This document shows, one piece after another, positions 21,164 to 36,264 of a stretch of 41,800 nucleotides of DNA. The DNA lies in the NCBI GenBank assembly GCA_019636815.1, contig JAHBWT010000033.1, positions 1 to 41,800 on the forward strand. The letters are read 5' to 3'. The notes beneath the pieces are model-generated. The model had not been told where the DNA came from. It made no database searches and worked only from the letters and a program-made list of their open reading frames with translations. Every line of letters starts with the position of its first letter. Position 1 is the first letter of the stretch. This DNA comes from Nitrospira sp. Lineage in GTDB: Bacteria; Nitrospirota; Nitrospiria; Nitrospirales; Nitrospiraceae. The position numbers and the translations under genes were made by a program.

Positions 21164-22854
21164 GGACAGATTGCTTTGTCGAGTATTGTCGGCAACGCGG
21201 CCTTTGTATTGACCGAGAGCGATTGGTACGGTTCGAACGCCTGGGTTTGTTTGCTCCAGTCTTCCGAGTGCGGACGCCAGGAGCAAATGAGCCGCCATTT
21301 CATATTCCGCTGCGCAAAGGGAATAACTGGTTCAGGAAGAGATTGGCGTGGGACACCACAGAGATTCCACCCAGCTATGAAATTCCGAGCCACCTAGATC
21401 GAACCCAGGAGGGCTACTACTCAGTTTTTCAGCTCGATTATCTTAATGCTGTCCTTCAGGGGATGACGCTTCATGTGAAGTTGGATGCCTATCTTGATCG
21501 CGACAAAGAGGACGCCATCGACTGGACCAAGAATAGTGGAGTTTGGATGCGGCATGCAGAGGGCATGGCGGAAACTCTGCGCACTCATGAATATCGCCGT
21601 GGTGTGTCATTTTTGTGTCAATACATTTCTAACTGGTATTACCCGAGAACACAGGGGGATCAGAGGACAATTCAGATAGGTGCAGGAAGCTTTTTGGATC
21701 GATGGATCAGCATTAACGGTCATGGCTGGAACTGGCATGAGAAGGTTAAGGATTGGAAACCTCAAACTGCGGAGCGCCTATTTGATCTGACGCCCGAAAA
21801 ACTGCGCCACGCTTATGACGGACTGGCTGGTGAACAAGAGCACTGCGATCCCCTTCAGCACTGGTATCAACTTATGCAATTTATCTCTGTTCGTGAACGG
21901 GCCAGGCTGAAGGGTGATGCCTTACGAGCTGAGACGCTGCGTTCGGCGGCGCACATGCTGCGCTTTCTTCACAGAGACTTATATGGCGAGGAGCTGCCTC
22001 ATCCAAACGAAGTCACTGGGACGATCATCGTTCATGTGCCGGAATTGGCAGTTCGCCAGGATGCACGTCATTATCTGGAATTTGTTGTTAACCGTTTCGG
22101 GCTCAACCCTCAGCCTAAGCTTGCCCTAATTGTAGAAGGGCAGAGCGAAGAACGCGCAGTTGAAAAGATTTTTGAGAGATATTTTGGTGCTCATCATGGC
22201 ATCTATGGAATTGAAATTATCGTTCTTGGCGGAGTCGATAACGCCACGGGTGCAAGGGAAGATCGTTTCCGGGCAATTTTACGACTCGTTGACTATCTAC
22301 ACCACCACCAGACACTCACGTACGTTATTCTTGACAATGAAAATTACGCGAAACGGCTTAAAGAAGAGGCGAAAAGGGCCAAGTCTATCCATGGCAGCCA
22401 GCGTTACGTGACGCGGCCTGGATACATACGCATATGGAAAGATTCATTCGAGTTCGACAACTTTTCATGCAGTGAGATCGCTGCTGCGATGAGTATACAG
22501 GCACAGGGCCATACGACTTTTACCTCCGCTGAGGTCGCTGCCTGCAGGAAGGCAGGCCAAAATCCGGGTTCAAATTTGCAAGGGCTGTATAAGCAAAAGG
22601 CTTGCTACGGTCTCAATAAAGTCAGGCTGAGCGAGAATCTGGTTGAAATTATGATGTCGCAAGACTCAGAGCACACTATCCAGCGTCGCCCCATAGTTAA
22701 AACACTGGAGCATGTAGCGCGGCTAGCAGCCAGGAATCTGTTGCCAGCGATGTCTGAAGTTTGGGAAAGGAACCAAGTATCAAAATATTTTGGCAAGAAA
22801 CGCAAACCACCTCAATGCGCAGAAGATGGTAATGGCTTGAGTGGGGATGTTTAG
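21157..22854 (+). CDS. large protein with C-terminal TOPRIM domain (OLD-nuclease-like)
   Basis: The 565 residues are read from a TTG at 21157, the only candidate start in frame, which suggests the true start was lost upstream. The N-terminal half (to about residue 320) is unrecognised. The C-terminal part has TOPRIM features: LALIVEGQSEERA with glutamate 327, and VILDNEN with D393 and E395 in place of the usual DxD. No Walker A motif is visible, so it is not a complete OLD-type ATPase-nuclease. TOPRIM proteins of this kind cleave or process nucleic acids, often in phage defence; that role is inference. It lies 228 bp after fic. Confidence 0.65.
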   Translation: MLGTDCFVEYCRQRGLCIDRERLVRFERLGLFAPVFRVRTPGANEPPFHIPLRKGNNWFRKRLAWDTTEIPPSYEIPSHLDRTQEGYYSVFQLDYLNAVLQGMTLHVKLDAYLDRDKEDAIDWTKNSGVWMRHAEGMAETLRTHEYRRGVSFLCQYISNWYYPRTQGDQRTIQIGAGSFLDRWISINGHGWNWHEKVKDWKPQTAERLFDLTPEKLRHAYDGLAGEQEHCDPLQHWYQLMQFISVRERARLKGDALRAETLRSAAHMLRFLHRDLYGEELPHPNEVTGTIIVHVPELAVRQDARHYLEFVVNRFGLNPQPKLALIVEGQSEERAVEKIFERYFGAHHGIYGIEIIVLGGVDNATGAREDRFRAILRLVDYLHHHQTLTYVILDNENYAKRLKEEAKRAKSIHGSQRYVTRPGYIRIWKDSFEFDNFSCSEIAAAMSIQAQGHTTFTSAEVAACRKAGQNPGSNLQGLYKQKACYGLNKVRLSENLVEIMMSQDSEHTIQRRPIVKTLEHVARLAARNLLPAMSEVWERNQVSKYFGKKRKPPQCAEDGNGLSGDV

Positions 22855-22870
22855 AGTTCAGACTCTAAAC
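22849..22870. repeat. 9-bp perfect inverted repeat at the end of the TOPRIM gene
   Basis: GTTTAGAGT (22849-22857) and ACTCTAAAC (22862-22870) form a hairpin with a four-base loop that includes the stop codon. It lies between convergent genes (TOPRIM protein and WD40 protein), so a terminator-like role is possible, but there is no T run. Confidence 0.5.
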
Positions 22871-22914
22871 CAGAATGGATAGAACGTGAAGACCGTTCGA
22901 AGCAAGGACTTTAA

Positions 22915-24009
22915 TTACTCTTCCCTCTTCTCTCCCCCCTCCCACAGTTTCACCGTTCGATCCCACGAAGCGCTGGCGAGGCGTTTGCCGTCTGGAGAAA
23001 AGACGACGCAGCGTACACCTGCGCTATGGCTTTTGAGCGTCCGGAAATTTCGGCCGGTAGCGAGATCCCAAAACTTGATGGTTTGGTCGTCGCTTGCGCT
23101 GACCAAGACTTTTCCATCCGGTGATACGGCGAGACTGCGGACCCAGCCCTTGTGGCCGGTGAGGGATTTTTTCTCCACGACGGTCGGCATCTCGAACAGC
23201 TTGATGGTGGTATCTCGGCTTCCGGTAATGAGGAGTGAGGCATCGGGAGTGAAGGTCATGGCACCGATCCAGTAATCCATCGGCTTTTGAAATCCGCCGT
23301 CATCTTCAATGAAGTAGCCGCGAGTTTCGGTGGATTCTTGCTCGTCTTGCCGCCAGTGGCCGTCGTGAAGCACCTTTTCCTCGCCGCTCGGGAGCACCTC
23401 CCACACCTTGATCTTCCCGATATCCGTTCCACTGGCGAGGTGAATGCCGTCCGGAGAAAAAACCACGCAGACCGACCAGTGGTGGTCGTATTCGTCCTTG
23501 CCGAGCAAGGTCATCAGCTCAGTGCCGGTCGTGACTTCCCAAATCTTGATGTCTTTATTATGGCTGCCGCGCGCGAGCATGAGACCGTCCGGCGAAAGCG
23601 AGAGGCTGCACACGTTATGATCGTAACGAGTGAAGAGGAGTTTCGTCGGCGCCCCGGTCTTTCCGTCCCAGAGGCGGATGGTGCGGTCTTCGCTGCCGGT
23701 AGCTAAGGTCTGCCCGTCCGGTGTGAAGACGATGGCCCGGATATCGTTGGTGTGGCCGCGAAGGGAGCGCAGCAACCGACCGGTTTCGACGTCCCACATA
23801 CGGACAAGGCGTTCAGCGCCGCCGCTGGCGAGCATGGTTCCATCCGGTGAAAACGCGACGGCCCAGATTCCATGCGAATGACCACGAAACGTTTTCACCT
23901 CACGACACTCGGCACTCCAATGCTCCAAAAAGTCGAAAGGAGACGTCGATACTGGCGATGTTTCTGGAGAGACGGTTGGGAGCGAATGGGACATCATAGG
24001 TTCCGGCAT
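22915..24009 (-). CDS. WD40-repeat protein, single seven-bladed propeller
   Basis: The 364-residue protein has seven WD40 repeats (typical openings FRGHSHGIWAVAFSPDG, LRGHTNDIRAIVFTPDG, LTGHKGWVRSLAVSPDG), enough to close one beta-propeller. Repeats four and five are separated by an insertion of about 35 residues with HDGHWRQDEQ. No kinase, caspase or nuclease domain and no signal peptide are visible, so it is probably a cytoplasmic scaffold. Three ATG codons (24009, 23997, 23994) could be the start. It is divergent from the 24202 gene, with a 192-bp shared upstream region. Confidence 0.9.
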   Translation of the reverse strand: MPEPMMSHSLPTVSPETSPVSTSPFDFLEHWSAECREVKTFRGHSHGIWAVAFSPDGTMLASGGAERLVRMWDVETGRLLRSLRGHTNDIRAIVFTPDGQTLATGSEDRTIRLWDGKTGAPTKLLFTRYDHNVCSLSLSPDGLMLARGSHNKDIKIWEVTTGTELMTLLGKDEYDHHWSVCVVFSPDGIHLASGTDIGKIKVWEVLPSGEEKVLHDGHWRQDEQESTETRGYFIEDDGGFQKPMDYWIGAMTFTPDASLLITGSRDTTIKLFEMPTVVEKKSLTGHKGWVRSLAVSPDGKVLVSASDDQTIKFWDLATGRNFRTLKSHSAGVRCVVFSPDGKRLASASWDRTVKLWEGGEKREE

Positions 24010-24201
24010 GTGTCGTGTGTTCCCTTGGTTGTCTGGTCCTTGATTGGTCGACAGCCCGGCCAGTATAATTCTGTCGGTCGTTCGGATCGTAAGAGATGCC
24101 TCGCGGCCAAGTCAAGCCGGCTCCAGTACCCGTAATTGTGGAGTAAGGAGTCGAGCGTGTTGTTTTATGGTCATCCCCTCTAGCCGCGGAGGGTTCTTCA
24201 A

Positions 24202-25200
24202 ATGGAAATCAGATTCCAACCAGCCTTGCTCCAGGAAGTGATCGACTCGTTCGTCGAAAAGACGGAACGTGAAGGTGATCCGACCTACTTCAAGGAATTC
24301 CATGAACATGCCGACCCGATTTACGAGAAATTCATCCTCGAAGATCGGGAGGCGGAGTTCAAAAAACTGTATCAATATCTCTTCGGCATCTGGGGGTTTT
24401 CGGACATCGTTCGCGACTCGTTCAACGAATATCCGCTCTTGAAGCAAAAGGTGGGAATCGTTCTCGTCAAAGGTGTGCTAAAGGAGGATCAGGAGGGCGT
24501 CGACATCCTCAGAAAATGGGGGTCGGTCGAAAAAGACCTGGCCAAAGAATTCGAAGAGAAAGGCATGAAGGGCGTCGGGATCAAACTGATTCCCCGTCGT
24601 TTTTACGACCCGGCGTTGACCCGCTATTGCCGCCATGAGTTGATGCATATTTCGGACATGATCGATCCGCAATTCGGTTACGATCCTGATACCAAGATGG
24701 GACTCAATCCCGGTGAAGAGACGTTAATCTTACAGCGTTATCGCGTGCTCTGGAGTCTAAGTGTGGACAGTCGGTTGGTGGCGGTAGGCAAGGAACCTAT
24801 GTTGAGCAAGGAGGACCGGTTCAAGGAGTTTCGGTCGTGGTATCGAAAAATTCCACCGCCTCAACTCACGTCGGTGTTCGAAGGTCTGTGGCAAACCTCC
24901 TACTTCACTCATTCAGAGTTGATCGAAATGGCCGCCGACACGCTGCGCGTGATGGATCGAGCCGTGGATGTGGAAGGCGGAGAGGTGCCGGAGACGGAAA
25001 ACAAGATCATGCTCATGCCGGGTTTCCCTTGCCCCCTATGTCGGTTTCCAACCTATTCGTGGGTGGAGGATATGGGCACGAAATTGGAGCCGTATGTGCT
25101 CGACTTCATCCGTGAGAATCATCCGGGATGGGATATTGAATTCGGGGCCTGCGATCGTTGTGTGGAAGTCTATCAATTGCGAGCAGATGGAGTGATGTAG
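24202..25200 (+). CDS. unrecognised protein with HExxH motif and C-terminal zinc-ribbon cysteines
   Basis: The 332-residue soluble protein opens the cluster of redox-assembly genes. I do not recognise the family. The sequence shows H145-E-L-M-H149, the pattern of zinc metallopeptidases, in a CRHELMHISD context, and a C-terminal pair of CxxC motifs (C277/C280 and C317/C320) that could bind zinc or a metal centre. There is no signal peptide or membrane segment. A GGAGGG ribosome site precedes the ATG. It lies 16 bp before the Fe-S protein gene, so co-transcription is likely. A protease acting in enzyme maturation is one possibility; the HExxH may equally be a metal-binding or chance motif. Confidence 0.88.
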   Translation: MEIRFQPALLQEVIDSFVEKTEREGDPTYFKEFHEHADPIYEKFILEDREAEFKKLYQYLFGIWGFSDIVRDSFNEYPLLKQKVGIVLVKGVLKEDQEGVDILRKWGSVEKDLAKEFEEKGMKGVGIKLIPRRFYDPALTRYCRHELMHISDMIDPQFGYDPDTKMGLNPGEETLILQRYRVLWSLSVDSRLVAVGKEPMLSKEDRFKEFRSWYRKIPPPQLTSVFEGLWQTSYFTHSELIEMAADTLRVMDRAVDVEGGEVPETENKIMLMPGFPCPLCRFPTYSWVEDMGTKLEPYVLDFIRENHPGWDIEFGACDRCVEVYQLRADGVM

Positions 25201-25216
25201 AGGCGGGCGAAGGTTT

Positions 25217-25819
25217 ATGGCCACCAACCCTTCATACGGCCGGCGAGATTTTCTGAAAGATTCCGTTTTTTCCACGGTCAAAGCTGCGCAAGAGCTCGTC
25301 AGGGAGGCAGACGGCCTCTGCAAGGAGCAAACCCCGGCTCGGGTTCGGCTGGACTGGTTGCGTCCTCCCGGTGCGGTGGAAGAACAACTTTTTCTCGAGA
25401 GGTGTACGAAATGCCATGACTGCGTGAAGGCCTGTCCACCCCACGCCATCGTCGCCCATCCGAACGACGGCACGCCGGTTCTGTATGCCGATCAATCCCC
25501 TTGTCTCCTGTGTGAAGACTTTCCTTGCGCGACGGCCTGCGGGACGGACGCGCTCGTACCGGTCGAGCACAGCCGCCAGGTGGAAATGGGAGTGGCGGCG
25601 ATCTTACATCGGCTGTGTACGGCAGGCCAAGGATGCCATGCTTGTGTGTCGCGGTGTCCAACCGACGCCCTCGTCATGGATTTCGAGTCGTTATGTCTTT
25701 CAGTGGTGACGGAGGTTTGTGTGGGATGTGGTATGTGTGAGATGGTCTGCAAAACCGTCAACGATCATGTGGCGATTCGAGTGGTGCCTGCAAGGCATCT
25801 GACGGAGATCGACCGGTGA
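25217..25819 (+). CDS. four-cluster ferredoxin-type protein (NapG/NapF/MauM-like)
   Basis: The 200-residue protein has four cysteine groups for [4Fe-4S] clusters: CTKCHDCVKACPP, CLLCEDFPCATACG, GCHACVSRCP with an upstream Cys, and CVGCGMCEMVCK. The N-terminus has a twin-arginine pattern (RRDFLK) but a weakly hydrophobic stretch after it, so it may be Tat-exported like NapG or remain cytoplasmic like NapF. In periplasmic nitrate reductase systems such proteins pass electrons or help load Fe-S clusters. It is placed between the HExxH protein and the TorD-like chaperone, so a role in assembly of a molybdoenzyme is inferred. Confidence 0.9.
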   Translation: MATNPSYGRRDFLKDSVFSTVKAAQELVREADGLCKEQTPARVRLDWLRPPGAVEEQLFLERCTKCHDCVKACPPHAIVAHPNDGTPVLYADQSPCLLCEDFPCATACGTDALVPVEHSRQVEMGVAAILHRLCTAGQGCHACVSRCPTDALVMDFESLCLSVVTEVCVGCGMCEMVCKTVNDHVAIRVVPARHLTEIDR

Positions 25820-25955
25820 TGCCATCATTCCAAGACCAAGATCAACCCAATTCGCCCTTGACTTCGTACAAGCCTTTTCATATACATACATGGCTTCGCT
25901 TTTCGACCAGCATGAGGAAGCGTGTCGTAAGCGAAATGGCAAGGAGGCGGTGTCT

Positions 25956-26933
25956 GTGACAAGCCAACAACCGATAAAAGGGTCGTCCCTCGTAGCAACG
26001 GCCACGATGCCAACCCCTTCTGCTATCAAGGATTCTCCAGCGGTAGAACGTGCGCTTGGGCGCAGCAAGATCTACCTTTTAATTTCCTGGAGTCTTCTGT
26101 ACCCGGAAGATGAAGAATTTCTTGATTACCTTCGGTGCGGAGAGTTCGTTGAGGATGGCAGGGCAGCGCTTGATGCGCTGGAAGCTGCCTTTGGCTCGGA
26201 CGGTAATGAGCGAACGAAGGGGAAATTGAGTGCGCTTAGGAAGCAGATGGTCTTGATCGAAGACTTGGTTGCGTCAGAATGCGTCAATTGGCAACTCGGT
26301 GATCTTCAGTCTGAACATCGCCGAGTATTTAGTAACGTCATCACGCTCGATTGTCCTCCCTATGAAACCCTGTTCGGGAATGACCACGTATTCGCGCAAT
26401 CTCACGTGATGGGGGATATTTCAGGATTTTATAAGGCCTTCGGCGTTGAGTTATCCAAAGACATCCATGAGCGACTGGATCATCTGAGCGTCGAGTTCGA
26501 GTTCATGCACTTTCTCGCCTACAAAGAATCGTACTCGCGCTGTCATGACGGGATCGAAAAAACGCAAATCGTGGTGGATGCCCAGAAGAAGTTCGTCAAG
26601 AACCATATCGGCCGATGGGTGCCGCTTTTCTGTCGTATGCTGGCTAAGAAGGCGGATTCCGGACCCTTTAAATTGATAGCCGATCTCACCGCCGACTGGA
26701 TGGAGTTTGAGACCGTGTTTCTCGGTGTGGTGCCTCAGCCCTACACGGAAACCGATTATCGTCCGGCGACATTCAACTCTCCGGAAGGACAGACCTATGA
26801 ATGTGGTGCGCAAGATCAAGGCAATGAACTGAGCATGTTGCTGAATGAAGTGGGTGCGCAATCATACATGGATGTGAAAGAGAAAGAGAAGGATGCGGAT
26901 ATGGAGCAGAGAGGACCTGCGGGGAATGCCTGA
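25956..26933 (+). CDS. TorD/NarJ-family molybdoenzyme chaperone
   Basis: The product is an all-helical protein of about 325 residues in the TorD/DmsD/NarJ superfamily. Signs include SKIYLLISWSLLYPEDEEFLDYL at the start of the fold (read as two adjoining parts), a central EHRRVFSNVITLDCPPYET segment, typical of the family, and EFEFMHFLAYKE in the later helices. These chaperones hold the apo-molybdoenzyme until cofactor insertion and Tat export. I prefer GTG at 25956 because AGGAGG (25942-25947) lies eight bases upstream; the ATG at 25890 has no ribosome site and adds a disordered-looking 22 residues. The C-terminal extension past residue 290 is longer than in standard TorD. Confidence 0.85.
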   Translation: MTSQQPIKGSSLVATATMPTPSAIKDSPAVERALGRSKIYLLISWSLLYPEDEEFLDYLRCGEFVEDGRAALDALEAAFGSDGNERTKGKLSALRKQMVLIEDLVASECVNWQLGDLQSEHRRVFSNVITLDCPPYETLFGNDHVFAQSHVMGDISGFYKAFGVELSKDIHERLDHLSVEFEFMHFLAYKESYSRCHDGIEKTQIVVDAQKKFVKNHIGRWVPLFCRMLAKKADSGPFKLIADLTADWMEFETVFLGVVPQPYTETDYRPATFNSPEGQTYECGAQDQGNELSMLLNEVGAQSYMDVKEKEKDADMEQRGPAGNA

Positions 26934-26999
26934 CAGACTCGACAGCGAGAATTGAACGAAACGTTACCCTTACCATCATCGAGAGGAGGGATTAGCATT

Positions 27000-27950
27000 A
27001 TGAGCGTAGCGCAGACGACCAACAAGAAATTGGTGTTTGCCATTCTTCTCTCCGCCCTGACCGTCGGATTTCTGCTGACGATGGGGCGAGTACCACTAGC
27101 CGTCAGCCAACCGGTCACCATCCCGGCCAAGACGGTCAAGGGCCCGATTCCCATGGACGGCGCCAATCCCATTTGGGAAAGTGTCCCAGGTGTCGTTGTT
27201 CCGTTGAGCGGTCAGTTGATCACAACACCGATGCATCCCAATATTTCGGTTAAGTCGGTGTTCGTCAAGGCTATGACCAATGGGAAGGATATTGGGTTGC
27301 GTTTAGAGTGGATCGATCAGACGAAGAATGACACCGCGATTGGCCCACAGGACTTTCGTGACCAGGTGGCAGTGATGTTTCCCGTCAACACGGCAGGAGC
27401 TCCGCCGTTCCAGTGCATGGGGCAGTCCGGTGGAACGACCAACATCTGGCGGTGGAATGCCGAGTGGCAGAAGGACATCGGCAAGGATAGTGCCGGTATT
27501 TGGGATGTGGATGATCAATACCCAGGCATTTTCTGGGACTATTACTTTGAAGAGCCTGCCGGGGGTGTCACATATCCAGACCGCATCGGCCGAAGCCTCG
27601 GCCCATTCAATTCCGGCATTTGGTCGGGCAACATTATGTCTGATCCGACGCTTCGCGTAAGCTCAGTGGAAGATCTGAGCGCGAACGGCTTCAGCACCCT
27701 CACGACGCAAGCGCACCAGGATGTCATCGGAAACGGTGTGTGGGAACCGTCTGGGTCTATCAAGGGTGGAGGATATACGGGGCCGACATGGCGGGTTGTC
27801 GTGAAGCGGACATTAGAAACCGGCGACGCGAACGATGTGCAGTTTAAGGCGGGAATGTCGGTGCCGATCGCGTTTGCAGTGTGGGATGGCGCCAACATTG
27901 AACGAAACGGCATGAAGTCGCTTTCGACCTGGTTTACATTGAAGTTGTAG
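27000..27950 (+). CDS. EB_dh-type heme b subunit, NxrC-like (first copy)
   Basis: The 316-residue protein has an N-terminal signal or anchor segment (FAILLSALTVGFLLTMG) and one EB_dh domain, as in the gamma subunits of DMSO-reductase type II enzymes (ethylbenzene, chlorate, selenate, nitrite oxidoreductases). Heme b ligand candidates by family analogy are M140 in QCMGQ and K269 in VVVKRTL. The ATG at 27000 follows GAGAGGAGGG. It directly follows the TorD-like chaperone, fitting a candidate NxrC that links the catalytic subunits to periplasmic cytochromes. A strong terminator lies 60 bp downstream. It is clearly related to the 33611 product (shared TKND, FRD, CMGQ and NIW segments). Confidence 0.88.
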   Translation: MSVAQTTNKKLVFAILLSALTVGFLLTMGRVPLAVSQPVTIPAKTVKGPIPMDGANPIWESVPGVVVPLSGQLITTPMHPNISVKSVFVKAMTNGKDIGLRLEWIDQTKNDTAIGPQDFRDQVAVMFPVNTAGAPPFQCMGQSGGTTNIWRWNAEWQKDIGKDSAGIWDVDDQYPGIFWDYYFEEPAGGVTYPDRIGRSLGPFNSGIWSGNIMSDPTLRVSSVEDLSANGFSTLTTQAHQDVIGNGVWEPSGSIKGGGYTGPTWRVVVKRTLETGDANDVQFKAGMSVPIAFAVWDGANIERNGMKSLSTWFTLKL

Positions 27951-28010
27951 TCGCTCTGTACATGCTAGCGGCTTTGAAGCTCCGCGCTAGCGCAGGGATG
28001 ACAGATTGAG

Positions 28011-28058
28011 GCCTCGGATCGGTTCTCGAAGAGTGAGGGAACGATCCGAGGCTTTTTT
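28011..28058 (+). terminator. Rho-independent terminator after the first NxrC-like gene
   Basis: An 11-bp perfect stem (GCCTCGGATCG at 28011-28021 with CGATCCGAGGC at 28042-28052), a loop of about 20 bases and six T residues. It ends the 24202-27950 gene run and separates it from the radical SAM gene. A smaller hairpin (GCTAGCG at 27964-27970, CGCTAGC at 27985-27991) lies just before it. Confidence 0.92.
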
Positions 28059-28095
28059 CCATTTCGAGAGCTGGACGAATGATCATGGCATGGGA

Positions 28096-28125
28096 TTGCA
28101 TTTGACAAACTGCGGAGAGTATAAA
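28096..28125 (+). promoter_or_regulatory. possible sigma-70-type promoter of the radical SAM operon
   Basis: TTGCAT (28096-28101), an 18-bp spacer and TATAAA (28120-28125) lie between the terminator and the GTG at 28179. The neighbouring TTGACA at 28102 is only 12 bp from TATAAA and so is not a usable -35 with it. A promoter here is expected from context; the exact elements are uncertain. Confidence 0.35.
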
Positions 28126-28178
28126 GAGAACATTCGTCGAAATCGCTGATTTTCAAGACTAAAAGGACTTATCTTGCC

Positions 28179-29957
28179 GTGAAAGTCTCCTTGCTTTTCC
28201 CGCCGACATGGCATCCGTCTCAACCCTATCTCAGTTTGCCCTCCCTGACGGGATTTTTGCACCAGGGTGGGATTTCAGACGTTTCGCAGCGCGATCTCGG
28301 CATCGAATTGCTGGATACGATACTAACACGGGGGTACGCGGCTGAGATCTATCAACTGTTGATCGCGAAGCAACGAGACCTCGAGAGAACTCAAACAGGA
28401 GAGACCGGTGCAGGGAGCCGAGAGCACTACGCGAAGGTAACCGATTCTCTTGATCGCTTTGCCTATCTCGTCGACCGCATCGAGCTGGCGAAGGAGACCT
28501 TGCGCAGCGAGGAGTTTTACGATCTCGATGCCTATCGAGCCAGTTTGTTTGTGATCGATAAATGGTTGGAAGTTGTCTCGGCAGTCTACTTCCCAACACG
28601 GCTGACCGTTGTCGATAATCAGTTTGGGAACTATTCGATTTATTCCTCCAAAGATCTGATGAAAGTCGTTCGTGACGAGGAGCAGAATCCCTTTCTCAGC
28701 CTCTTCCGAAACCGGTTCCTTCCGTCAATCGTCAACAGCCGACCCGATCTCATCGGAGTCTCAATTACCGCGACGTCTCAGATCATTCCCGGCCTGACGC
28801 TCTGTCGGTTGATCAAAGAGGCCGCTCCTGATCTCCATGTGACGATCGGCGGCAGTATCTTTACTCGTCTCGTCGACAACATTCGTCGCTGTCCGAGTCT
28901 TTTTGATTTGACCGATGATATCGTCGTGTTCGAGGGGGAAACGGCTTTGTTGGAATTGGTGAACCAGTTGGCAGGCAAGAAGGATTACAGCAAAGTTCCG
29001 AACCTGATCTATCGCAACAACGGAAAAATTACGGTCAACCAGCCGTTCTATTCAGAACAGGTCGATCAACTCCCGGCGCCGAACTATGACGGCTTTCCGC
29101 TGGATCTTTATCTGTCACCGGAGCCGGTGCTTCCGGTTCAGTTTTCTCGAGGTTGTTACTATAAAGATTGTGCCTTCTGTGCATTGACTCTCGATCACCA
29201 GAATTTCCGCCAGAAGGACCCAGGACGGACCATCGAAGAGTTGCAGTGGCTCAAACAACGCTATGGCGCGCGGCATTTCTTTTTCACAGACGAGTGCTTC
29301 GCGCTGGCGCCGACGAAACGGCTGTGCCGGCAGATGATCGAGAAACACCTCGATGTGAAATGGACGTGCGAGATGCGGTTTGAGAAAAACCTTTCTCGCG
29401 AACTGTTGGCATCCATGCGGGATGCCGGGTGTTTGAAGATCGTCTTCGGATTGGAATCGTTCAACCAACGCATCATGGACTTTATGAAGAAGGGGATCAA
29501 GCAAGAGTGGGTCCGGCGAATTGCGGATGATTGCGTCGATCTCGGAATAGCCGTGCATTGCTATGTCATCGTCGGGTTCCCTACGGAAAAAGAGGAAGAA
29601 GCGCTCGAAACGATGAACTTCATCGTGGAAAATAAGAAATTGCATCGATCATACGGATTTTCTTGTCAGCCCTGCTTGTTCGATTTGGAAAAAGAAGCTC
29701 CGATCATGAGCGACCCCGGCGGATATGGGATTCGTCGCATCATGCGACCGTCGGCGGAGGACCTCAGTCTTGGTTTCTTCTATGAAGTGCAAGAGGGCAT
29801 GACCCCCGATGAAGCGGAACGGCTCTACCAATACGTGTATGAACGGATCAGCGAGGTCGTGTGCGAACTTCCGTTCAACTATGCCATGGCGGATGGATTG
29901 CTGTACATCTCCAGGGCCAGAGAAGGCGCCGAACAGGCCCCAGTGGCCGCACGTTGA
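28179..29957 (+). CDS. B12-binding-domain radical SAM protein
   Basis: The 592-residue protein has an N-terminal region fitting a cobalamin-binding domain (opening KVSLLFPPTWHPSQPYLSLP; later LIGVSITATSQIIPGL and VTIGGSIFTRL). A radical SAM core follows with cysteines C326, C331 and C334. The spacing is C-x4-C-x2-C, one residue longer than the classic CxxxCxxC, a variant I recall from some B12-binding radical SAM groups. FVFGLESFNQRIMDFM-type residues for SAM binding follow. The product and substrate are unknown. GTG at 28179 is the likely start. It leads the second half of the redox cluster, 49 bp before a membrane-protein gene. Confidence 0.9.
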   Translation: MKVSLLFPPTWHPSQPYLSLPSLTGFLHQGGISDVSQRDLGIELLDTILTRGYAAEIYQLLIAKQRDLERTQTGETGAGSREHYAKVTDSLDRFAYLVDRIELAKETLRSEEFYDLDAYRASLFVIDKWLEVVSAVYFPTRLTVVDNQFGNYSIYSSKDLMKVVRDEEQNPFLSLFRNRFLPSIVNSRPDLIGVSITATSQIIPGLTLCRLIKEAAPDLHVTIGGSIFTRLVDNIRRCPSLFDLTDDIVVFEGETALLELVNQLAGKKDYSKVPNLIYRNNGKITVNQPFYSEQVDQLPAPNYDGFPLDLYLSPEPVLPVQFSRGCYYKDCAFCALTLDHQNFRQKDPGRTIEELQWLKQRYGARHFFFTDECFALAPTKRLCRQMIEKHLDVKWTCEMRFEKNLSRELLASMRDAGCLKIVFGLESFNQRIMDFMKKGIKQEWVRRIADDCVDLGIAVHCYVIVGFPTEKEEEALETMNFIVENKKLHRSYGFSCQPCLFDLEKEAPIMSDPGGYGIRRIMRPSAEDLSLGFFYEVQEGMTPDEAERLYQYVYERISEVVCELPFNYAMADGLLYISRAREGAEQAPVAAR

Positions 29958-30006
29958 CCCTCTTTTTTTTCGACCGCTATAAGCACAGGTTGTCGTGGGT
30001 GGAGTC

Positions 30007-31131
30007 ATGAAAGCAGCAGTAGGGAGTGAGCGGTTGACGGGGAAAATTTCGGACTTTGGCCCGTTGTTCGAGTATGCCGTCAAGTTGGTTCTGCTGGCCT
30101 CCTTCCTTGAGCTGGTTCTGTATCGTCTGCTTTCCCGCCTTGGCATGCATCTGAGTAAGATGGCAGCGGAACATCCCTGGATTACGCCGACGTTCACCGC
30201 ATTGACAGAAGTCGGGACATGGCTCATCAACATCGTCGCCGTGTTGTTGTTTCTTGCTCTGGCGTTGGCCATGATCAACCGATGGAAAGGCCATGACACA
30301 AGTTGGCTGGTCAGGGGAGGAATCGCAGGCACGGTCCTGCTGTTGCTGTTGACCATCGTGTTTCTCGTTGTACAGCCGGGGATGTTGGGCGCCGTCATCT
30401 ATAACGGGTTGACGCTCGCCGTTCTCACGGCGTTCGTATCGGAGTACTGGATCACCCATCGCGAGTCGGCACAACGAGTGCTGGTTGCCGCCTACTATCT
30501 GGGCGTCTCGGGATGGTTGTACTATCAGATCGTGTCGAGCTTCTATAGTTGGATGGGGGCGGTCGCGGCACCTCCGTTGGTGTATGAATCGCACCGGACG
30601 GGTGAGGCGTTCATGCTGCTGGCCAGTTACCTGGTGTTTGTGGCGTACGGGAAGAGCAGGAGTGTCTCGCTTCGCACGAAGAATCGCCGCCAACTGAGCC
30701 GCGCCATGTGGTTTTGGGGGGTCACCGCGGTCGTATTCTCGGCGCTGATCGTCGCCGACTATCTTTTGGATCTGTACAGCCCGGCAGTTGCCTCAGCCTT
30801 TAGGAAGGCTTCGCAAGGCATCGGCTGGATCTTCCAATTCGGTATGGGCTACACGTTCTATCTGCCCTTCGCGATTTATGTCGGAGGACTGCTCTGTTGG
30901 TCTTACACGGTCGTGAAGTTGCTGATGACGGGTCGCTTGGCAGGGTATGGGATCGGTCTCATGTTCATCGCCGGCTATGCGCTTTTGTTCTCGAACCTTA
31001 CATTGATGGTCGTCCTTGGAGTGATGTTGCTCGCATTTGATCGAGCGAAGGCGGCCACACAGGAAGCCGTGTCGACAAGGGAAGGTTCTGTGATGCCGAC
31101 TGCGGAGAGGCTCATCACGGGGCAAGTGTAA
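30007..31131 (+). CDS. polytopic membrane protein, about nine to ten helices
   Basis: The 374-residue product is strongly hydrophobic. Helices appear near residues 14-33, 66-90, 103-121, 126-145, 155-180, 198-213, 236-255, 275-305 and 310-345. No CxxC, heme-ligand pattern or transporter signature that I recognise is present. The ATG at 30007 is preferred, although a GTG at 29995 is in frame. Its position between the radical SAM gene and the TPR gene suggests it belongs to the same functional module; a heme, quinone or cofactor-handling role would be speculation. Confidence 0.85.
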   Translation: MKAAVGSERLTGKISDFGPLFEYAVKLVLLASFLELVLYRLLSRLGMHLSKMAAEHPWITPTFTALTEVGTWLINIVAVLLFLALALAMINRWKGHDTSWLVRGGIAGTVLLLLLTIVFLVVQPGMLGAVIYNGLTLAVLTAFVSEYWITHRESAQRVLVAAYYLGVSGWLYYQIVSSFYSWMGAVAAPPLVYESHRTGEAFMLLASYLVFVAYGKSRSVSLRTKNRRQLSRAMWFWGVTAVVFSALIVADYLLDLYSPAVASAFRKASQGIGWIFQFGMGYTFYLPFAIYVGGLLCWSYTVVKLLMTGRLAGYGIGLMFIAGYALLFSNLTLMVVLGVMLLAFDRAKAATQEAVSTREGSVMPTAERLITGQV

Positions 31132-31151
31132 ACCAAAGAGCGAGTTGTGTT

Positions 31152-31958
31152 ATGGACACGCCTGGACAGACGACATCGCATGTAGACACCTCGGTTGATC
31201 CCGGAGATCTCACGCTTTCCCCCGAAGAAGAAATTGCCGGGATCGAAAAATTATTGGCAAGTGAGCCGGACGACTTTCAGGCGCGCTGTCGACTGGGTGA
31301 ATTGTACTTCAGCAAGGGGCGTCTCGACGATGCGTTGGCAGAGGTCAAAAAAGCGATCGAGATGGCCGAAGGCCTGCGCGCGGAGATGAATCGCTCGCTG
31401 GCCATGTACTATGCAAACCTCGGAACGATCTACGCGACCAAGAACATGAGCGACGAGGCCGAAGCCGAATTCCGGCGCGCGTTGGAGATTTTTCCGCATG
31501 ATGTCCTGGCCTTGTTCAACCTGGGGAGACTGTACGCGGACAAAAAGAACTATTTGGACGCGAAGAATTACTACGAGCGTCTCGTCGAGATCACTCCGGA
31601 TGATCCCATCGCGTGGTACAACTTGGCCGGGGTCTATGTCGAGTTAGATAACCCGCAAGTGTCCGATTACAACACAATCGACATGGGGATTCAGTGTTAC
31701 CTGCGCACCTTGGAGTTGGATCCCAAACACTTGGAGTCGAGCTTCAAGCTGATGGAAATCGCCCTCAATCACAAGAAAAGCGATTTGGCGATTCGGGTTA
31801 TGGAGAGCGCCGTGGAGCACAATCCTGACGAGCCTCTGGCGTATTACAATCTCATCAGTGTCTACGATAAATGTAAGATGTTCGATCAAGCGGAAGAGGC
31901 TCGCAAGCGGTTGAAAGAACGGTTTGCCAAGAAGGCAAAAGACAATCCTCGGTCCTGA
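31152..31958 (+). CDS. TPR-repeat protein
   Basis: The 268-residue soluble protein is made of about six tetratricopeptide repeats (segments such as FQARCRLGELYFSKGRLDDA, ALFNLGRLYADKKNYLDA and IAWYNLAGVYVELD). There is no signal peptide, so it probably acts in the cytoplasm as a protein-binding scaffold. It is 20 bp after the membrane-protein gene and 24 bp before tatA, so co-transcription is likely and a role in assembling exported complexes is plausible. Confidence 0.9.
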   Translation: MDTPGQTTSHVDTSVDPGDLTLSPEEEIAGIEKLLASEPDDFQARCRLGELYFSKGRLDDALAEVKKAIEMAEGLRAEMNRSLAMYYANLGTIYATKNMSDEAEAEFRRALEIFPHDVLALFNLGRLYADKKNYLDAKNYYERLVEITPDDPIAWYNLAGVYVELDNPQVSDYNTIDMGIQCYLRTLELDPKHLESSFKLMEIALNHKKSDLAIRVMESAVEHNPDEPLAYYNLISVYDKCKMFDQAEEARKRLKERFAKKAKDNPRS

Positions 31959-31982
31959 TCATTTTTTAGGAAGGGGGGTACT

Positions 31983-32258
31983 ATGTTTGGTAGCTTGGGG
32001 TTTACAGAACTTATTCTCATCCTCATGATCGTCTTGATCATTTTTGGTGCGGGGAAGCTTCCCCAATTAGGCGAAGGGCTCGGCAAGGCGATTAAGGGGT
32101 TCAAGAAGTCCGTGCATGAAGCGGACGCGATTGAGGCCGAAGCGCAAGCAGCAGCTCAACAGGGGACTTCGCCTCAAGCCGTAACCTCGACTGCAGCGCA
32201 GAACGCGTCGTTGACTCAGCCGGCTGGATCCACCGCCCAGCCTGCCCAGCGGTCCTAA
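31983..32258 (+). CDS. tatA: Tat translocase subunit TatA/TatE
   Basis: The 91-residue protein has the N-terminal membrane helix ([17 protein letters not shown]), the conserved [21 protein letters not shown] hinge and amphipathic helix (read with the preceding helix), and an Ala/Gln-rich tail. TatA forms the pore for folded proteins with twin-arginine signals. AGGAAGGGGGG precedes the ATG. No tatB or tatC is nearby, so this may be an extra copy serving the enzyme made by this cluster. Confidence 0.93.
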
Positions 32259-32269
32259 TCGGCTACACG

Positions 32270-33523
32270 ATGGATACTGAACTTGGGTTGGCCGCGGGTT
32301 ATATCGAGACTTTTGCTGGAAACGGCAAGGCCAGAAGCACCGGTGACGGCAAGCGAGCAGTCAAGGCGGGGATCCCCCTTCCACACCACCTCGCCATAGA
32401 CAGGGACCAGCAGTGGCTGTACTTCGCCGAATCCGGATCCGATCGAGTCCGCCGCGTTCATCTGCAAGATGGGACTATCCATAATTTTGCCGGTATCGGT
32501 GAGACCTGCTACAGCGGCGATGAAGGTCTCTGCGGTGAGGCCGGTCTCTATCTTCCTCTCGGTGTCGCGTTTGATTCCCAGAACAATTTGTACATCTGTG
32601 ATTCCGGGAGTAATCGGATTCGCAAGATCGATCATGAGACGGGCGTCATTACGACGGTGGTTGGAACCGGTCAACATGGGTTTAACGGAGACGGTCCGGC
32701 GCTGGAAGTCAATCTGACTTGGCCGGCGGCGATCGCGTTCGGGGAAAACGATGCCCTCTATATCGCCGATACCCAAGCGCATAAAATCCGGTGCTACGAT
32801 CCCAAGACCGGGATGGTCTCGACGATCGCAGGAACCTGGACGGGGGAGGATGAAGCGCGTGAGCAACCGTTGGTGGCGAGAAATTTGGTCGTGCTGTCCG
32901 GTGATGCGATCGGAATCGATTTTAGTGACGATCAGGGCTGGCTCATGCCGGTCTGTTCAGACGGGTTGGACATGTCGATGTATCTGGACGATAGAAAATC
33001 CGCGATGGACGCGCGTCTCTACGACATCGTCGGTCTTGCCGTGGATAGCAAGGGCGATCTGCATATGGTCGACAAGGGCAGCAATCGCGTCCGAAAGATC
33101 GACTCGCGGACCGGAATTATCTCGACCGTCGCGGGGATCTGCCGATACGGGTATGATGGTGACGACAAGCTGGCGATCAGGGCCATGCTCCACGCGCCGG
33201 AAGCCGTGATTGTTGACCGAGAGGACAATCTCTATATCTCCGACACGATGAATCATCGGGTCCGTAAAGTAGATGGGAAGACCGGTGCCATCACGACGGT
33301 GGCAGGGAACGGGGATAGTGGCTATGAGGACAAGAATATCGGCGGCTGCGGCGCCGCTCGATTTGTCGCCAAGGAATCGGCCGGAATGTTGAAACACGGC
33401 GACGGCCTGCTCGGGGTCGACGCCGTGGTGAATTCTCCTGTGGGTTTGGCGCTGGACTCCCAGGGCCATCTCTATATCTGCGAGCGCGGAGAAAACAAGA
33501 TCCGCCGACTCAAGCTTCTATAG
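32270..33523 (+). CDS. NHL-repeat beta-propeller protein
   Basis: The 417-residue protein consists of about six NHL blades, each with a pattern like LYICDSGSNRIRKIDHETG followed by ITTVVGTG-type strands and a GDG-containing loop. No signal peptide is visible and no heme motif is present. A stretch with fewer repeat features (about residues 190-250) interrupts the propeller. The gene starts 11 bp after tatA, with no clear ribosome site, suggesting coupled translation. Function is unknown; such propellers bind proteins or small ligands. Confidence 0.88.
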   Translation: MDTELGLAAGYIETFAGNGKARSTGDGKRAVKAGIPLPHHLAIDRDQQWLYFAESGSDRVRRVHLQDGTIHNFAGIGETCYSGDEGLCGEAGLYLPLGVAFDSQNNLYICDSGSNRIRKIDHETGVITTVVGTGQHGFNGDGPALEVNLTWPAAIAFGENDALYIADTQAHKIRCYDPKTGMVSTIAGTWTGEDEAREQPLVARNLVVLSGDAIGIDFSDDQGWLMPVCSDGLDMSMYLDDRKSAMDARLYDIVGLAVDSKGDLHMVDKGSNRVRKIDSRTGIISTVAGICRYGYDGDDKLAIRAMLHAPEAVIVDREDNLYISDTMNHRVRKVDGKTGAITTVAGNGDSGYEDKNIGGCGAARFVAKESAGMLKHGDGLLGVDAVVNSPVGLALDSQGHLYICERGENKIRRLKLL

Positions 33524-33610
33524 TCAACGCCTCCTCCTCGTCACGTTTGTCTCGTACCAGTTTTGTGGTAATCTGAATCCGATTCGTTCTCGGAGTATCA
33601 GGCTGTGCAT

Positions 33611-34429
33611 ATGGTTTTGATTGCCAACTCCCGCTCTCATCTCCTTGGTTTTTTATCCGGATTGATCGTCCTCGCCAGTGTCCTCGGGGCGTTCGGGATT
33701 CCCCTGGTCAGTTCCGAGGGAATGAGCATCAGATCATATTTGGTCCGAGGAGATCTGCCGAAGGCTGCCGACGCCGCCGCTTGGCAACACGTTTCGCCGA
33801 CCACCATTCCTCTAAGCGGCCAGGTCATTACGAGACCGGTCTGGCCCGAGCCCACGGTGCGCGCGTTGACCGTGCGGTCCATGCACAACGGGACCGATAT
33901 TGCCTTTCTCCTAGAGTGGCAAGACAACACGAAGAATGATCGACTGACTCCAGGCACCTTCCGGGATGGGGTTGCGATCGGCCTTCCCCTCGGTGATGCT
34001 CCGGCTTTTTTCTGTATGGGACAGCTGGATCATTACATCAACATCTGGCATTGGAAGGCGGATTGGCAGAGTGACATCGATCGGCGCGCGGCTCGTGCTT
34101 CGGAAAGGAAAGAGGGTGGTGTGCGGACCTTCGAAGTCATTCCACGGCGGGTTTCTTCCGTGGAAGATCTGATCGGTGGGGGATTCAGTACCCTGACCAC
34201 GAAAGAAAAACAGGGGCGAGTCCAGGGGCACGCGTTCTGGAAGGACGGTATCTGGCATGTCGTAATGCGCCGGCCACTTCAGAGTGAAGAGCAAGAGAGT
34301 GAAGCGAAACTTGTTCCAGGGCGCGTCCAAGCCATTTCGTTTTCCGTCTGGAACGGCGAAAATAAAGAGCGAAATGGACAGAAGGCCGTGGCCCCGTGGT
34401 TTCATCTTCGCCTCGATCCAATGACGTAA
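33611..34429 (+). CDS. EB_dh-type protein, NxrC-like (second copy)
   Basis: The 272-residue protein has an N-terminal hydrophobic signal or anchor (LGFLSGLIVLASVLGAFG) and an EB_dh domain related to the 27000 product. Shared segments include IPLSGQVIT, LEWQDNTKND, FRDGVAIG and CMGQ. M136 matches the Met ligand, but the position of the Lys ligand (K269 in the other copy) is R220 here (HVVMRRPL). It is about 40 residues shorter, mostly in the middle. GTG at 33605 is an alternative start two codons upstream. It may be a second electron-transfer subunit or a diverged duplicate. Confidence 0.85.
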   Translation: MVLIANSRSHLLGFLSGLIVLASVLGAFGIPLVSSEGMSIRSYLVRGDLPKAADAAAWQHVSPTTIPLSGQVITRPVWPEPTVRALTVRSMHNGTDIAFLLEWQDNTKNDRLTPGTFRDGVAIGLPLGDAPAFFCMGQLDHYINIWHWKADWQSDIDRRAARASERKEGGVRTFEVIPRRVSSVEDLIGGGFSTLTTKEKQGRVQGHAFWKDGIWHVVMRRPLQSEEQESEAKLVPGRVQAISFSVWNGENKERNGQKAVAPWFHLRLDPMT

Positions 34430-34493
34430 TCACAGAACGTCAGCGGTCATTTGTTTCTCGACGCGAGGCCGTTCCCTCAGTTGGAGAGCAAGA

Positions 34494-34931
34494 ATGTTGA
34501 ACGTGCCACTGCTAGTGGGAATCGTGCTGTCGTGCGGGCTCGCTTTCTTCGCGCAAGAGTTCGTATGTGCAACCACGGAGAGCGGCTCCATGACGGAGGA
34601 CGAGGCGTCGAGTCTTGGAGAGGAGTTTGGCATCGTGGTGGGGCCGGTGGATGAAGAAATCCAGAGGGAGCTGAAGTTGCAGCGGCCACAGGGCGTTGCG
34701 GTGTTCGAGGTGATCGGGAATTCACGAGCGGACGATGCGGGGATCAAGGTTCGGTCCGTCGTCAAGGAAATTGACAAACAGGAGATCCGCAACATGGCGG
34801 ATTTCGGTCGAGCCTTGAAGAAAGCCATGACAGGCTGCAACTTTACCGTCGGAACCTATGAGCCGGCAGAGCCGGGCGAGCCCGTCAGCTGGGGCGTCAA
34901 TTTCCATTTCGTCGGGTGCAAGCGGGATTAG
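34494..34931 (+). CDS. small exported PDZ-like protein
   Basis: The 145-residue product has a signal peptide (VPLLVGIVLSCGLAFFAQE) and a PDZ-like core: a GVAVFEVIGNSRADDAGIK peptide-binding region followed by VVKEIDKQEIRNMADF. It has no protease domain. A GGAG ribosome site precedes the ATG. It lies 64 bp after the second NxrC-like gene and 19 bp before the first multiheme cytochrome, so a helper role in the periplasm is inferred. Two cysteines (in TGCNF and VGCKRD) sit near the end. Confidence 0.85.
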   Translation: MLNVPLLVGIVLSCGLAFFAQEFVCATTESGSMTEDEASSLGEEFGIVVGPVDEEIQRELKLQRPQGVAVFEVIGNSRADDAGIKVRSVVKEIDKQEIRNMADFGRALKKAMTGCNFTVGTYEPAEPGEPVSWGVNFHFVGCKRD

Positions 34932-34950
34932 GGAGCGAAGGTCGATCGAC

Positions 34951-36264
34951 ATGACAGCAGCGCGATTCATGCGCACGGTCAGAGCGGTGATCATGTTGAG
35001 CTGCCTCAGCGGCCTGTCTGACAAGGCCGCGATTGCTCAAGGGCTAGAGGGTCAAGCTTCCACTGATCACGCGTCGTCTGATTGGGCAGCAGAAATCGAA
35101 CGTGTATTTATTCGGTCGGAGGATTGTAAGCAATGTCATGTTCGCCACTATGAAGAGTGGAAGGGGGCGAGAGAGCAGACTCCTGACCTGAAGACGTTTG
35201 GCCGTGTGGATGCGGCACTTCTGCATGGCATGTCGCTGGAGTCCCCTGTTTTTCGAACCGTCTTAGGTCTCTGGAAACAGACGAATCCGACGCCCGATGA
35301 GCAGCGGGCATGCCTTTCGTGCCATGTGCCGTCCGTGACGATATTCCCCCAGCATGCCGAGCGGATTGTGGCGAGCGTCCTGGCTGGAAAGCCGAGCGTG
35401 GAGGGAATCGGCTGTGCGGCGTGCCATTTGATGAACGGGATCGTTCGAAGCGAGAGCTCGCACCCGAGCTTCAACGTGCAACCAGGCAAGACTCTCTATG
35501 GCCCCTATCCCAATCCCGAAGAGAACTTGGTTCACCAGGCCGCGCAGTCTGATCAGTTTCGTGAAGTCAGTTTTTGTGCCTCCTGCCACTTCGATAAAGT
35601 GAAAGATGTGGGTCAGAAGGACCTGCCCGGAGAAATTCTTCAGGGGACCGTTTGCCAAGATTGTCACATGGAACCGTCGACCGGCAGTTCCACCTCCCGG
35701 CGAGGGGCGATGACCAGACCAATCGGGCGTCACTGGTTTCGCGGGGTGGTCGTTTCCGGCACGATGTTAAAGAACCGGAACGTCCAAGCCGAATGGATGC
35801 CTCGCATCGACATCGGGGTGACGAAAAGCGACGCGATCGTGGAAGGAATCGGGGCTGTGAAGGTCGGGAGTCTCCCGCATAGTTTTCCGGACGGTGATCC
35901 CGTCCTGAAACAGTTCTTTCTGACTCTGACGGTGAAGGATGTGAAAGGTCGGACATTAGCAGAAGAAACAAAGCAGTTTGGATCGTCATATGAGAAGATT
36001 CTTCGCGGTCCGATTCCCGATCCTTTCGTAAAAGGGGGTACGACGCGGAAGGTTCCCTTTGCGCTCACGCTTCCCGCTGGGGCCGTTGCTTCATCCATTG
36101 AGGCCGTGCTTACTTACTCGCTGATCCCGATGCCGACACCGGAATTACAACAAACGTATCTCGATTCGCTGGCGACGGATGTAGAGCGAGAAGAGGCGAA
36201 GAAGATCATTCGGGAATATACACAGCGGCACTTTTTGACGTATCGTGTCACATCACTTTCCTAG
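34951..36264 (+). CDS. pentaheme c-type cytochrome (c554-like), first of a tandem pair
   Basis: The protein has about 437 residues: a signal peptide ending near AIAQG, then five CxxCH motifs in order: CKQCH (from C59), CLSCH, CAACH, CASCH and CQDCH. A heme-free beta-rich C-terminal third of about 190 residues follows. The pattern resembles cytochrome c554 and related multiheme proteins. The ATG at 34951 is chosen because the signal peptide begins there; an open frame further upstream overlaps the PDZ gene. It aligns along its length with the next gene product, sharing GKTLYGPY and the heme spacing, so the pair arose by duplication. Confidence 0.88.
   Translation: MTAARFMRTVRAVIMLSCLSGLSDKAAIAQGLEGQASTDHASSDWAAEIERVFIRSEDCKQCHVRHYEEWKGAREQTPDLKTFGRVDAALLHGMSLESPVFRTVLGLWKQTNPTPDEQRACLSCHVPSVTIFPQHAERIVASVLAGKPSVEGIGCAACHLMNGIVRSESSHPSFNVQPGKTLYGPYPNPEENLVHQAAQSDQFREVSFCASCHFDKVKDVGQKDLPGEILQGTVCQDCHMEPSTGSSTSRRGAMTRPIGRHWFRGVVVSGTMLKNRNVQAEWMPRIDIGVTKSDAIVEGIGAVKVGSLPHSFPDGDPVLKQFFLTLTVKDVKGRTLAEETKQFGSSYEKILRGPIPDPFVKGGTTRKVPFALTLPAGAVASSIEAVLTYSLIPMPTPELQQTYLDSLATDVEREEAKKIIREYTQRHFLTYRVTSLS

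What the first reader, a model, noticed from the sequence alone, without database searches (positions are those of the whole stretch)
24202..25200. Unrecognised protein with HELMH and two CxxC pairs at the head of the redox cluster
H145-E-L-M-H149 fits a zinc peptidase motif and C277/C280 with C317/C320 fits a zinc ribbon or metal site, in a protein I cannot assign. Its position 16 bp from an Fe-S protein gene and next to a TorD chaperone suggests a maturation factor, perhaps a processing protease.
Basis: partly seen in the sequence, partly recalled or inferred. Interest (0 to 1): 0.55.

Follow-up and report, generated by a model that had tools for sequence, protein, structure and literature searches.

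The report
Conserved two-metal-site nitrite-oxidase accessory protein
A nitrite-oxidising Nitrospira carries, at the start of a gene cluster for its key enzyme nitrite oxidoreductase, an uncharacterised, strongly conserved protein with a possible zinc-protease motif and a separate four-cysteine metal-binding module, which is probably a dedicated helper for assembling that enzyme.

Summary
A 332-aa ORF (24202-25200) carries H145-E-L-M-H149, C277/C280 and C317/C320. It starts an operon 16 bp upstream of a 4Fe-4S protein, followed by a TorD-type chaperone and an nxrC-like gene. No Pfam, NCBIfam or PDB sequence match was found. All seven named residues are invariant in 98 of 99 distinct homologues (the 99th, broken at its C-terminus, lacks only C317 and C320) and survive in a relative 34% identical (G092).

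The gene follows the nitrite-oxidoreductase (NXR) lineage: 137 of 140 sampled genomes of three Nitrospirales families have it, and the misses coincide with cut or missing loci. Outside the order only G092 (1 of 252) has it, also the only outsider with a close NxrB; there it sits in an nxrB-torD-nxrC-[gene]-FeS-membrane-protein block followed by an Fe-S carrier ATPase. The four cysteines form a module that also occurs as stand-alone ~60-aa proteins.

An NXR-dedicated cytoplasmic maturation factor is well supported. Protease activity is not: both AlphaFold models were unusable (pLDDT 55 and 52), profile comparison with two HExxH families found nothing significant, and no third ligand is established.

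The parts
24202..25200 (+). The 332-aa protein (P0001), first gene of the operon; no known family
24634..24648 (+). HELMH motif, residues 145-149
   Evidence: H145, E146, H149 invariant in 99 of 99 homologues and in G092 as HELVH
25018..25197 (+). C-terminal Cys4 module, residues 273-332, with C277/C280 and C317/C320
   Evidence: aligned with stand-alone 59-60 aa proteins
24040..24069 (+). Promoter-like site TTGATT-18-TATAAT for the operon
   Evidence: TATAA in all 19 rows printed
24086..24115 (-). Divergent promoter-like site TTGACT-18-TACGAT, toward the WD40 gene
   Evidence: conserved element
22915..24009 (-). WD40 beta-propeller protein, divergent neighbour
   Evidence: adjacent in 93 of 94 loci with room upstream
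25217..25819 (+). 4Fe-4S protein related to NapG/MauM, with an RRDFLK Tat-like start but no hydrophobic stretch after it
25890..26933 (+). TorD-type chaperone (PF02613; TIGR03482 below its cut-off)
26952..27950 (+). NxrC-like heme b subunit (PF09459), counterpart of nxrC_2
   Evidence: layout of N. moscoviensis in PMC6606698 passages
28179..29957 (+). B12-binding radical SAM protein, downstream, conserved in order-level loci that reach it
29995..31131 (+). Membrane protein without family; a homologue lies in the G092 block

Best explanation
The protein is a cytoplasmic accessory (maturation) factor dedicated to the Nitrospira-type nitrite oxidoreductase. Most likely mechanism (inferred): a two-domain metalloprotein. 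The C-terminal Cys4 module binds Zn or Fe and serves for docking or metal/redox sensing. The large N-terminal domain has an HExxH helix and probably binds a metal through H145 and H149 plus a third ligand, E172/E173 or H237. It acts with the TorD-like chaperone and the 4Fe-4S protein on the cofactor-loading NxrA/NxrB before Tat export, as a checkpoint or cofactor-insertion aid, or by cutting one bond of a precursor. Shown: the gene, strong purifying selection, invariant motifs, conserved synteny, NXR-linked distribution. Inferred: metal binding, partner proteins, the assembly role. Protease activity is a sub-hypothesis at about 0.25.
For: Distribution: 137 of 140 genomes of three Nitrospirales families, 0 of 3 of family f4, 1 of 252 outside the order (counts by kinship label are mine). 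The three misses have a cut or missing locus. The one outsider, G092, is the only outsider with a close NxrB. Its gene lies after nxrB-torD-nxrC and before a 4Fe-4S protein, a membrane protein homologous to window 29995-31131 and a NUBPL-type iron-transfer NTPase. Synteny: Fe-S gene next in 96 of 97, and in the 97th on inspection. Invariant motif residues. Identity across order-level loci like that of NxrC, 73.8 against 74.9%, and above TorD, 60.8%. No signal peptide or membrane stretch.
Against: NxrB was not found in the window's own genome nor in many other members of the order that carry the gene; I infer assembly loss of near-identical copies. nxrAB lie elsewhere in Nitrospira, so the operon link in this order is to nxrC, not nxrAB (PMC6606698 passages). 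Other genomes of the phylum with NxrC-family and type II beta subunits do without it. No fold, no biochemistry.
Confidence: 0.55

Rival explanations
1. It is an active gluzincin-like processing protease that cuts an NXR precursor or the Tat-like N-terminus of the Fe-S protein, comparable in logic to Atp23 or to hydrogenase maturation proteases (both recalled).
For: H145, E146 and H149 invariant, the catalytic-type Glu included, and kept at 34% identity in a hydrophobic LLLHELVHL setting. E172/E173 stand 23-24 residues after H149 and are invariant, as a third gluzincin ligand might. Weak Pfam matches of the G092 N-half to two HExxH families, SprT-like E 0.026 and M76 E 0.14.
Against: Those matches are below the curated cut-offs; the SprT one falls to 0.093 in the joined protein. 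hhalign with SprT and M78 sequences gave 0.8% and 7% probability, the latter away from the motif. AlphaFold models unusable. No substrate is known.
Confidence: 0.25
2. It is a metal- or redox-sensing regulator of the cluster rather than an assembly factor, the Cys4 module binding DNA, RNA or a partner protein.
For: Cys4 modules often mediate binding; stand-alone copies lie in unrelated-looking neighbourhoods; the operon has a conserved divergent promoter.
Against: No DNA-binding family match. Regulation would not explain why it sits between nxrC and Fe-S genes in G092.
Confidence: 0.1
3. It is unrelated to NXR and only shares the operon; its distribution reflects vertical descent in Nitrospirales.
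For: NxrB is not seen in several genomes that have the gene, the window's own included. nxrAB lie elsewhere in Nitrospira (PMC6606698 passages).
Against: Absent together with TorD from family f4, 0 of 4 genomes. In G092 it lies in an nxrB-torD-nxrC block. Synteny holds across the order.
Confidence: 0.1

Closest known systems
TorD/NarJ-type chaperones and type II DMSO-reductase chaperones (TIGR03482)
   Same: Works like: a cytoplasmic enzyme-specific factor encoded with its client's genes; the neighbour 25890-26933 is of this kind.
   Different: No sequence similarity to that family was reported for P0001; it has HExxH and Cys4 motifs.
FdhE, formate dehydrogenase accessory protein (recalled)
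   Same: Works like: a soluble accessory protein of a Mo/Fe-S enzyme with CxxC pairs (recalled, not compared here).
   Different: No FdhE family was reported for P0001. FdhE has no HExxH that I know of.
SprT-like (PF10263) and Atp23/Peptidase_M76 (PF09768) HExxH metalloproteins
   Same: HExxH helix; SprT proteins also carry a C-terminal zinc ribbon and Atp23 is both processing protease and assembly factor (recalled).
   Different: Matches below cut-off; hhalign with SprT 0.8%; no His downstream at SprT spacing; 127 residues lie between H149 and C277.
'Putative zinc finger' protein of the Nitrospina/Kuenenia/Nitrospira NXR gene set (PMC3578206, passages)
   Same: Conserved unassigned protein with a predicted zinc site in the same gene set as NXR and the TorD-like chaperone.
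   Different: The text gives no accession or sequence, so identity with P0001 could not be checked.

Membership tests
Zincin metalloprotease (HExxH superfamily) | HExxH conserved across the family | tested here: met
   99 of 99 distinct homologues and G092
Zincin metalloprotease (HExxH superfamily) | Zincin fold with a third metal ligand | tested here: inconclusive
   AlphaFold pLDDT 55.1 and 51.5; candidates E172, E173, H237 invariant
Zincin metalloprotease (HExxH superfamily) | Significant profile similarity to a known HExxH family | tested here: not met
   No Pfam hit for P0001; SprT E 0.026 and M76 E 0.14 for the G092 N-half, below cut-offs; hhalign 0.8% and 7%
Zincin metalloprotease (HExxH superfamily) | Metal content and peptidase activity | not testable with these tools
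   needs purified protein
Zinc-ribbon-like Cys4 module | Two CxxC pairs that form a self-contained domain | tested here: met
   Stand-alone 59- and 60-aa ORFs and a tandem copy share the eight invariant positions; metal itself not tested
Zinc-ribbon-like Cys4 module | Match to a named zinc-finger family over its cut-off | tested here: not met
   best zf-Di19, E 0.00027, 21.5 bits against 27.5, for the G092 stand-alone protein
NXR-dedicated accessory factor | Conserved neighbourhood with NXR-associated genes | tested here: met
NXR-dedicated accessory factor | Occurs with NXR and not without it | tested here: inconclusive
NXR-dedicated accessory factor | Loss of the gene impairs NXR assembly | not testable with these tools
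   needs genetics or heterologous expression

The most novel reading that the evidence does not exclude
Nitrite oxidoreductase of the Nitrospira type requires its own dedicated metalloprotease: a two-metal protein that proteolytically licenses a cofactor-loaded NXR precursor for export, a step with no precedent that I know of among type II DMSO-reductase-family enzymes.
Probability: 0.2. Interest if true: 0.75.

Novelty: new variant of a known kind. Interest (0 to 1): 0.5.

Why it matters
[quoted passage not shown] A near-universal, strongly conserved second factor with a testable catalytic-type glutamate (E146) and a Cys4 site gives a concrete target, and may be a missing component when functional Nitrospira NXR is to be made in another host.

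Tried and rejected
Structure: two AlphaFold runs, the full protein with 50 sequences and residues 78-262 with 31 sequences, gave pLDDT 55.1 and 51.5. Only window sequences and loci from the listed fetching tools are admitted there; I used window and the search for related loci sequences, all at least 85% identical to the query, so the alignments were shallow. One Foldseek search with the full-length model found nothing at E <= 0.001, and I drew no conclusion from its rows. Viral contigs and plasmids gave no relative. PDB: no hit for P0001; with the A1 profile two uricase sequences at E 0.2 with no alignment of the motif to an HExxH. The stand-alone module gave weak RING/CHY zinc-finger hits in the PDB (best E 0.0092) and zf-Di19 at E 0.00027, below cut-off; I treat these as Cys-pattern matches.

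The conserved intergenic element GATCGTAAGAGA-N11-CAAGTCAA looked at first like a regulatory motif. It occurs once in each of 6 genomes and coincides with the minus-strand promoter-like site toward the WD40 gene. No Rfam family reached its gathering score in 22000-35000 (one sub-threshold match at 33384-33492).

TIGR03477 (NxrC family) as a marker for NXR was rejected: it matches 210 of 395 genomes, among them many outside the order. Papers: the locus tag expected for the N. moscoviensis orthologue (NITMOv2_3627, inferred by counting) is in no held paper; the searches gave no description of the protein that I recognised in listings and the passages read. I did not look into supplementary files (the cap was 0).

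Full report
Observation. The ORF at 24202-25200 (+) encodes 332 residues with the stated motifs at the stated positions. GGAGG lies 9 bases before the ATG, and dN/dS against four relatives is 0.015-0.021, saturated against two more. It starts an operon. A promoter-like TTGATT-18-TATAAT lies at 24040-24069, with a divergent site toward the WD40 gene on the other strand; TATAA is present in all 19 rows printed. The highest 19-residue Kyte-Doolittle mean is 0.61, against 2.3 at the NxrC leader, so the protein is most likely cytoplasmic.

Identity. No Pfam or NCBIfam family up to E 1 and no PDB sequence up to E 10 matches P0001. The window belongs to a Nitrospira genome: nearly all of the 80 closest loci carry Nitrospira or Nitrospiraceae/Nitrospirae titles. 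The neighbourhood matches the N. moscoviensis layout read in passages of PMC6606698, where nxrC_2 is NITMOv2_3624 and the TorD-like chaperone NITMOv2_3625. PMC6131200 marks NITMOv2_3626 as a periplasmic nitrate reductase (passage), which fits the NapG-like Fe-S protein. By counting, the orthologue of P0001 would be NITMOv2_3627; that is an inference.

Conservation. Of the 128 loci held at that point, 99 distinct sequences longer than 310 aa were aligned; duplicates and shorter pieces were dropped. H34, H145, E146, H149, E172, E173, D189, H237, E239, D246, C277, C280 and H307 do not vary. C317 and C320 are missing only in L105, broken at its C-terminus. One relative lies outside the order, in G092, 34% identical overall, split over two contigs. 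It keeps H34, H145, E146, H149, E172, E173, D189, H237 and all four cysteines of the finding, and loses H36, C143, H307, E239 and D246.

Distribution. The first scan found the protein in 54 of 59 relatives. In 395 genomes of the phylum, 138 matched. From the kinship labels I count 143 genomes of the order: three families have 137 of 140, family f4 has 0 of 3 (0 of 4). Outside the order 1 of 252 matched with the whole protein. Of the misses, G295 and G383 keep TorD close to a contig end and G225 has no TorD; I did not follow in G383 on which side the gene should lie beyond noting that TorD starts at base 272. All four f4 genomes lack TorD too. With the 250-residue NxrB fragment of G092 as query, no genome outside the order except G092 itself scored better than 1e-75; the next outsiders, from 5.2e-73, have related beta subunits but not P0001. 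Against this, nxrB was not found in the window's own genome or in many other members of the order that carry P0001. PMC6606698 describes multiple, highly similar nxrAB copies (passages), and I infer assembly loss. Two of the three misses do have NxrB (G295, G383). Nitrite oxidisers and anammox bacteria of other phyla could not be reached with the tools.

Synteny. Among 97 loci with more than 900 bases downstream, the Fe-S gene follows in 96; in the 97th (L083) its start stands next to the gene and runs into an assembly gap. Among 80 with more than 2800 bases, gene > Fe-S > TorD > NxrC holds in 78. The other two are L065, where two NxrC hits change the printed order, and G092. The divergent WD40 gene is adjacent in 93 of 94. 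Over 13 order-level loci the mean identity is 73.8% for this protein, 74.9 for NxrC, 60.8 for TorD and 51.1 for the Fe-S protein. In G092 the order is NxrB, TorD (PF02613), NxrC (PF09459), the HELVH protein, a 4Fe-4S protein with an SRRELLLG start, a membrane protein homologous to window 29995-31131 (25% over 327, E 5e-5), and a NUBPL-type iron-transfer P-loop NTPase (PF10609 1.8e-82). The join of the two contigs rests on an overlap of about 45 bases with at least one mismatch, so it is inferred. The block combines nxr structural genes with Mo-enzyme and Fe-S maturation genes, and this protein lies inside it.

The Cys4 module. A profile including G092 found weak matches to residues 272-327 only, in G121 (1.2e-6), a second place in G092 (8.8e-6), G205 (5.3e-5) and, with a stop inside, G037 (0.001). 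The G092 and G205 matches are ORFs of 59 and 60 residues and the G121 ORF holds two copies. In G037 I saw no matching ORF of at least 45 aa. Eight aligned rows share C, P, C, P, W, G, C and C. C277/C280 and C317/C320 therefore most likely form one site in an independent module. No Pfam family reached its cut-off.

The HExxH region. The motif is invariant, but similarity to characterised HExxH families is not significant. The G092 N-half gives SprT-like at E 0.026 and M76 at 0.14. hhalign against 16 SprT-family and 13 M78-family sequences from this phylum gave 0.8% and 7% probability, the latter over a different region, whereas SprT against M78 gave 53%. AlphaFold failed, I think for lack of diversity, so the fold and the third ligand remain open.

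Interpretation. A dedicated NXR accessory protein is the simplest reading, at 0.55. Within it a non-proteolytic cofactor or checkpoint role and a processing protease are both open. I lean slightly to the former, because enzyme-specific accessory proteins with Cys motifs such as FdhE are the commoner precedent (recalled), while conservation of E146 keeps the latter alive. I found no description of the family in the libraries and papers searched here, except that PMC3578206 mentions an unnamed 'putative zinc finger' protein in the gene set shared by Nitrospina, Kuenenia and Nitrospira (passages), which may be the same protein.

Noticed in passing
L206:362-541 (+); L207:6250-6432 (-); L205:5442-5921 (+): Small stand-alone Cys4 proteins (59-60 aa, or a tandem of two) related to the C-terminal module of P0001, in Nitrospirota outside the order; no Pfam family over cut-off.
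   Followed up: partly
window 24085-24115: Intergenic element GATCGTAAGAGA-N11-CAAGTCAA, found once in each of 6 genomes; it coincides with the promoter-like site toward the WD40 gene.
   Followed up: yes
window 25217-25819: The NapG-like 4Fe-4S protein begins with RRDFLK like a Tat signal but has no hydrophobic stretch after it; perhaps a decayed or chaperone-recognised Tat start.
   Followed up: no
window 29995-31131: Membrane protein without any family match, conserved downstream in the order and in the G092 NXR block: another candidate NXR-associated protein.
   Followed up: partly
window 28179-29957: B12-binding radical SAM protein in the same cluster, 70.8% identical on average in 9 order-level loci; its substrate is unknown.
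   Followed up: no
L159:1930-2709 (+): In G092 a NUBPL/Mrp-type Fe-S carrier ATPase follows the NXR accessory block.
   Followed up: partly
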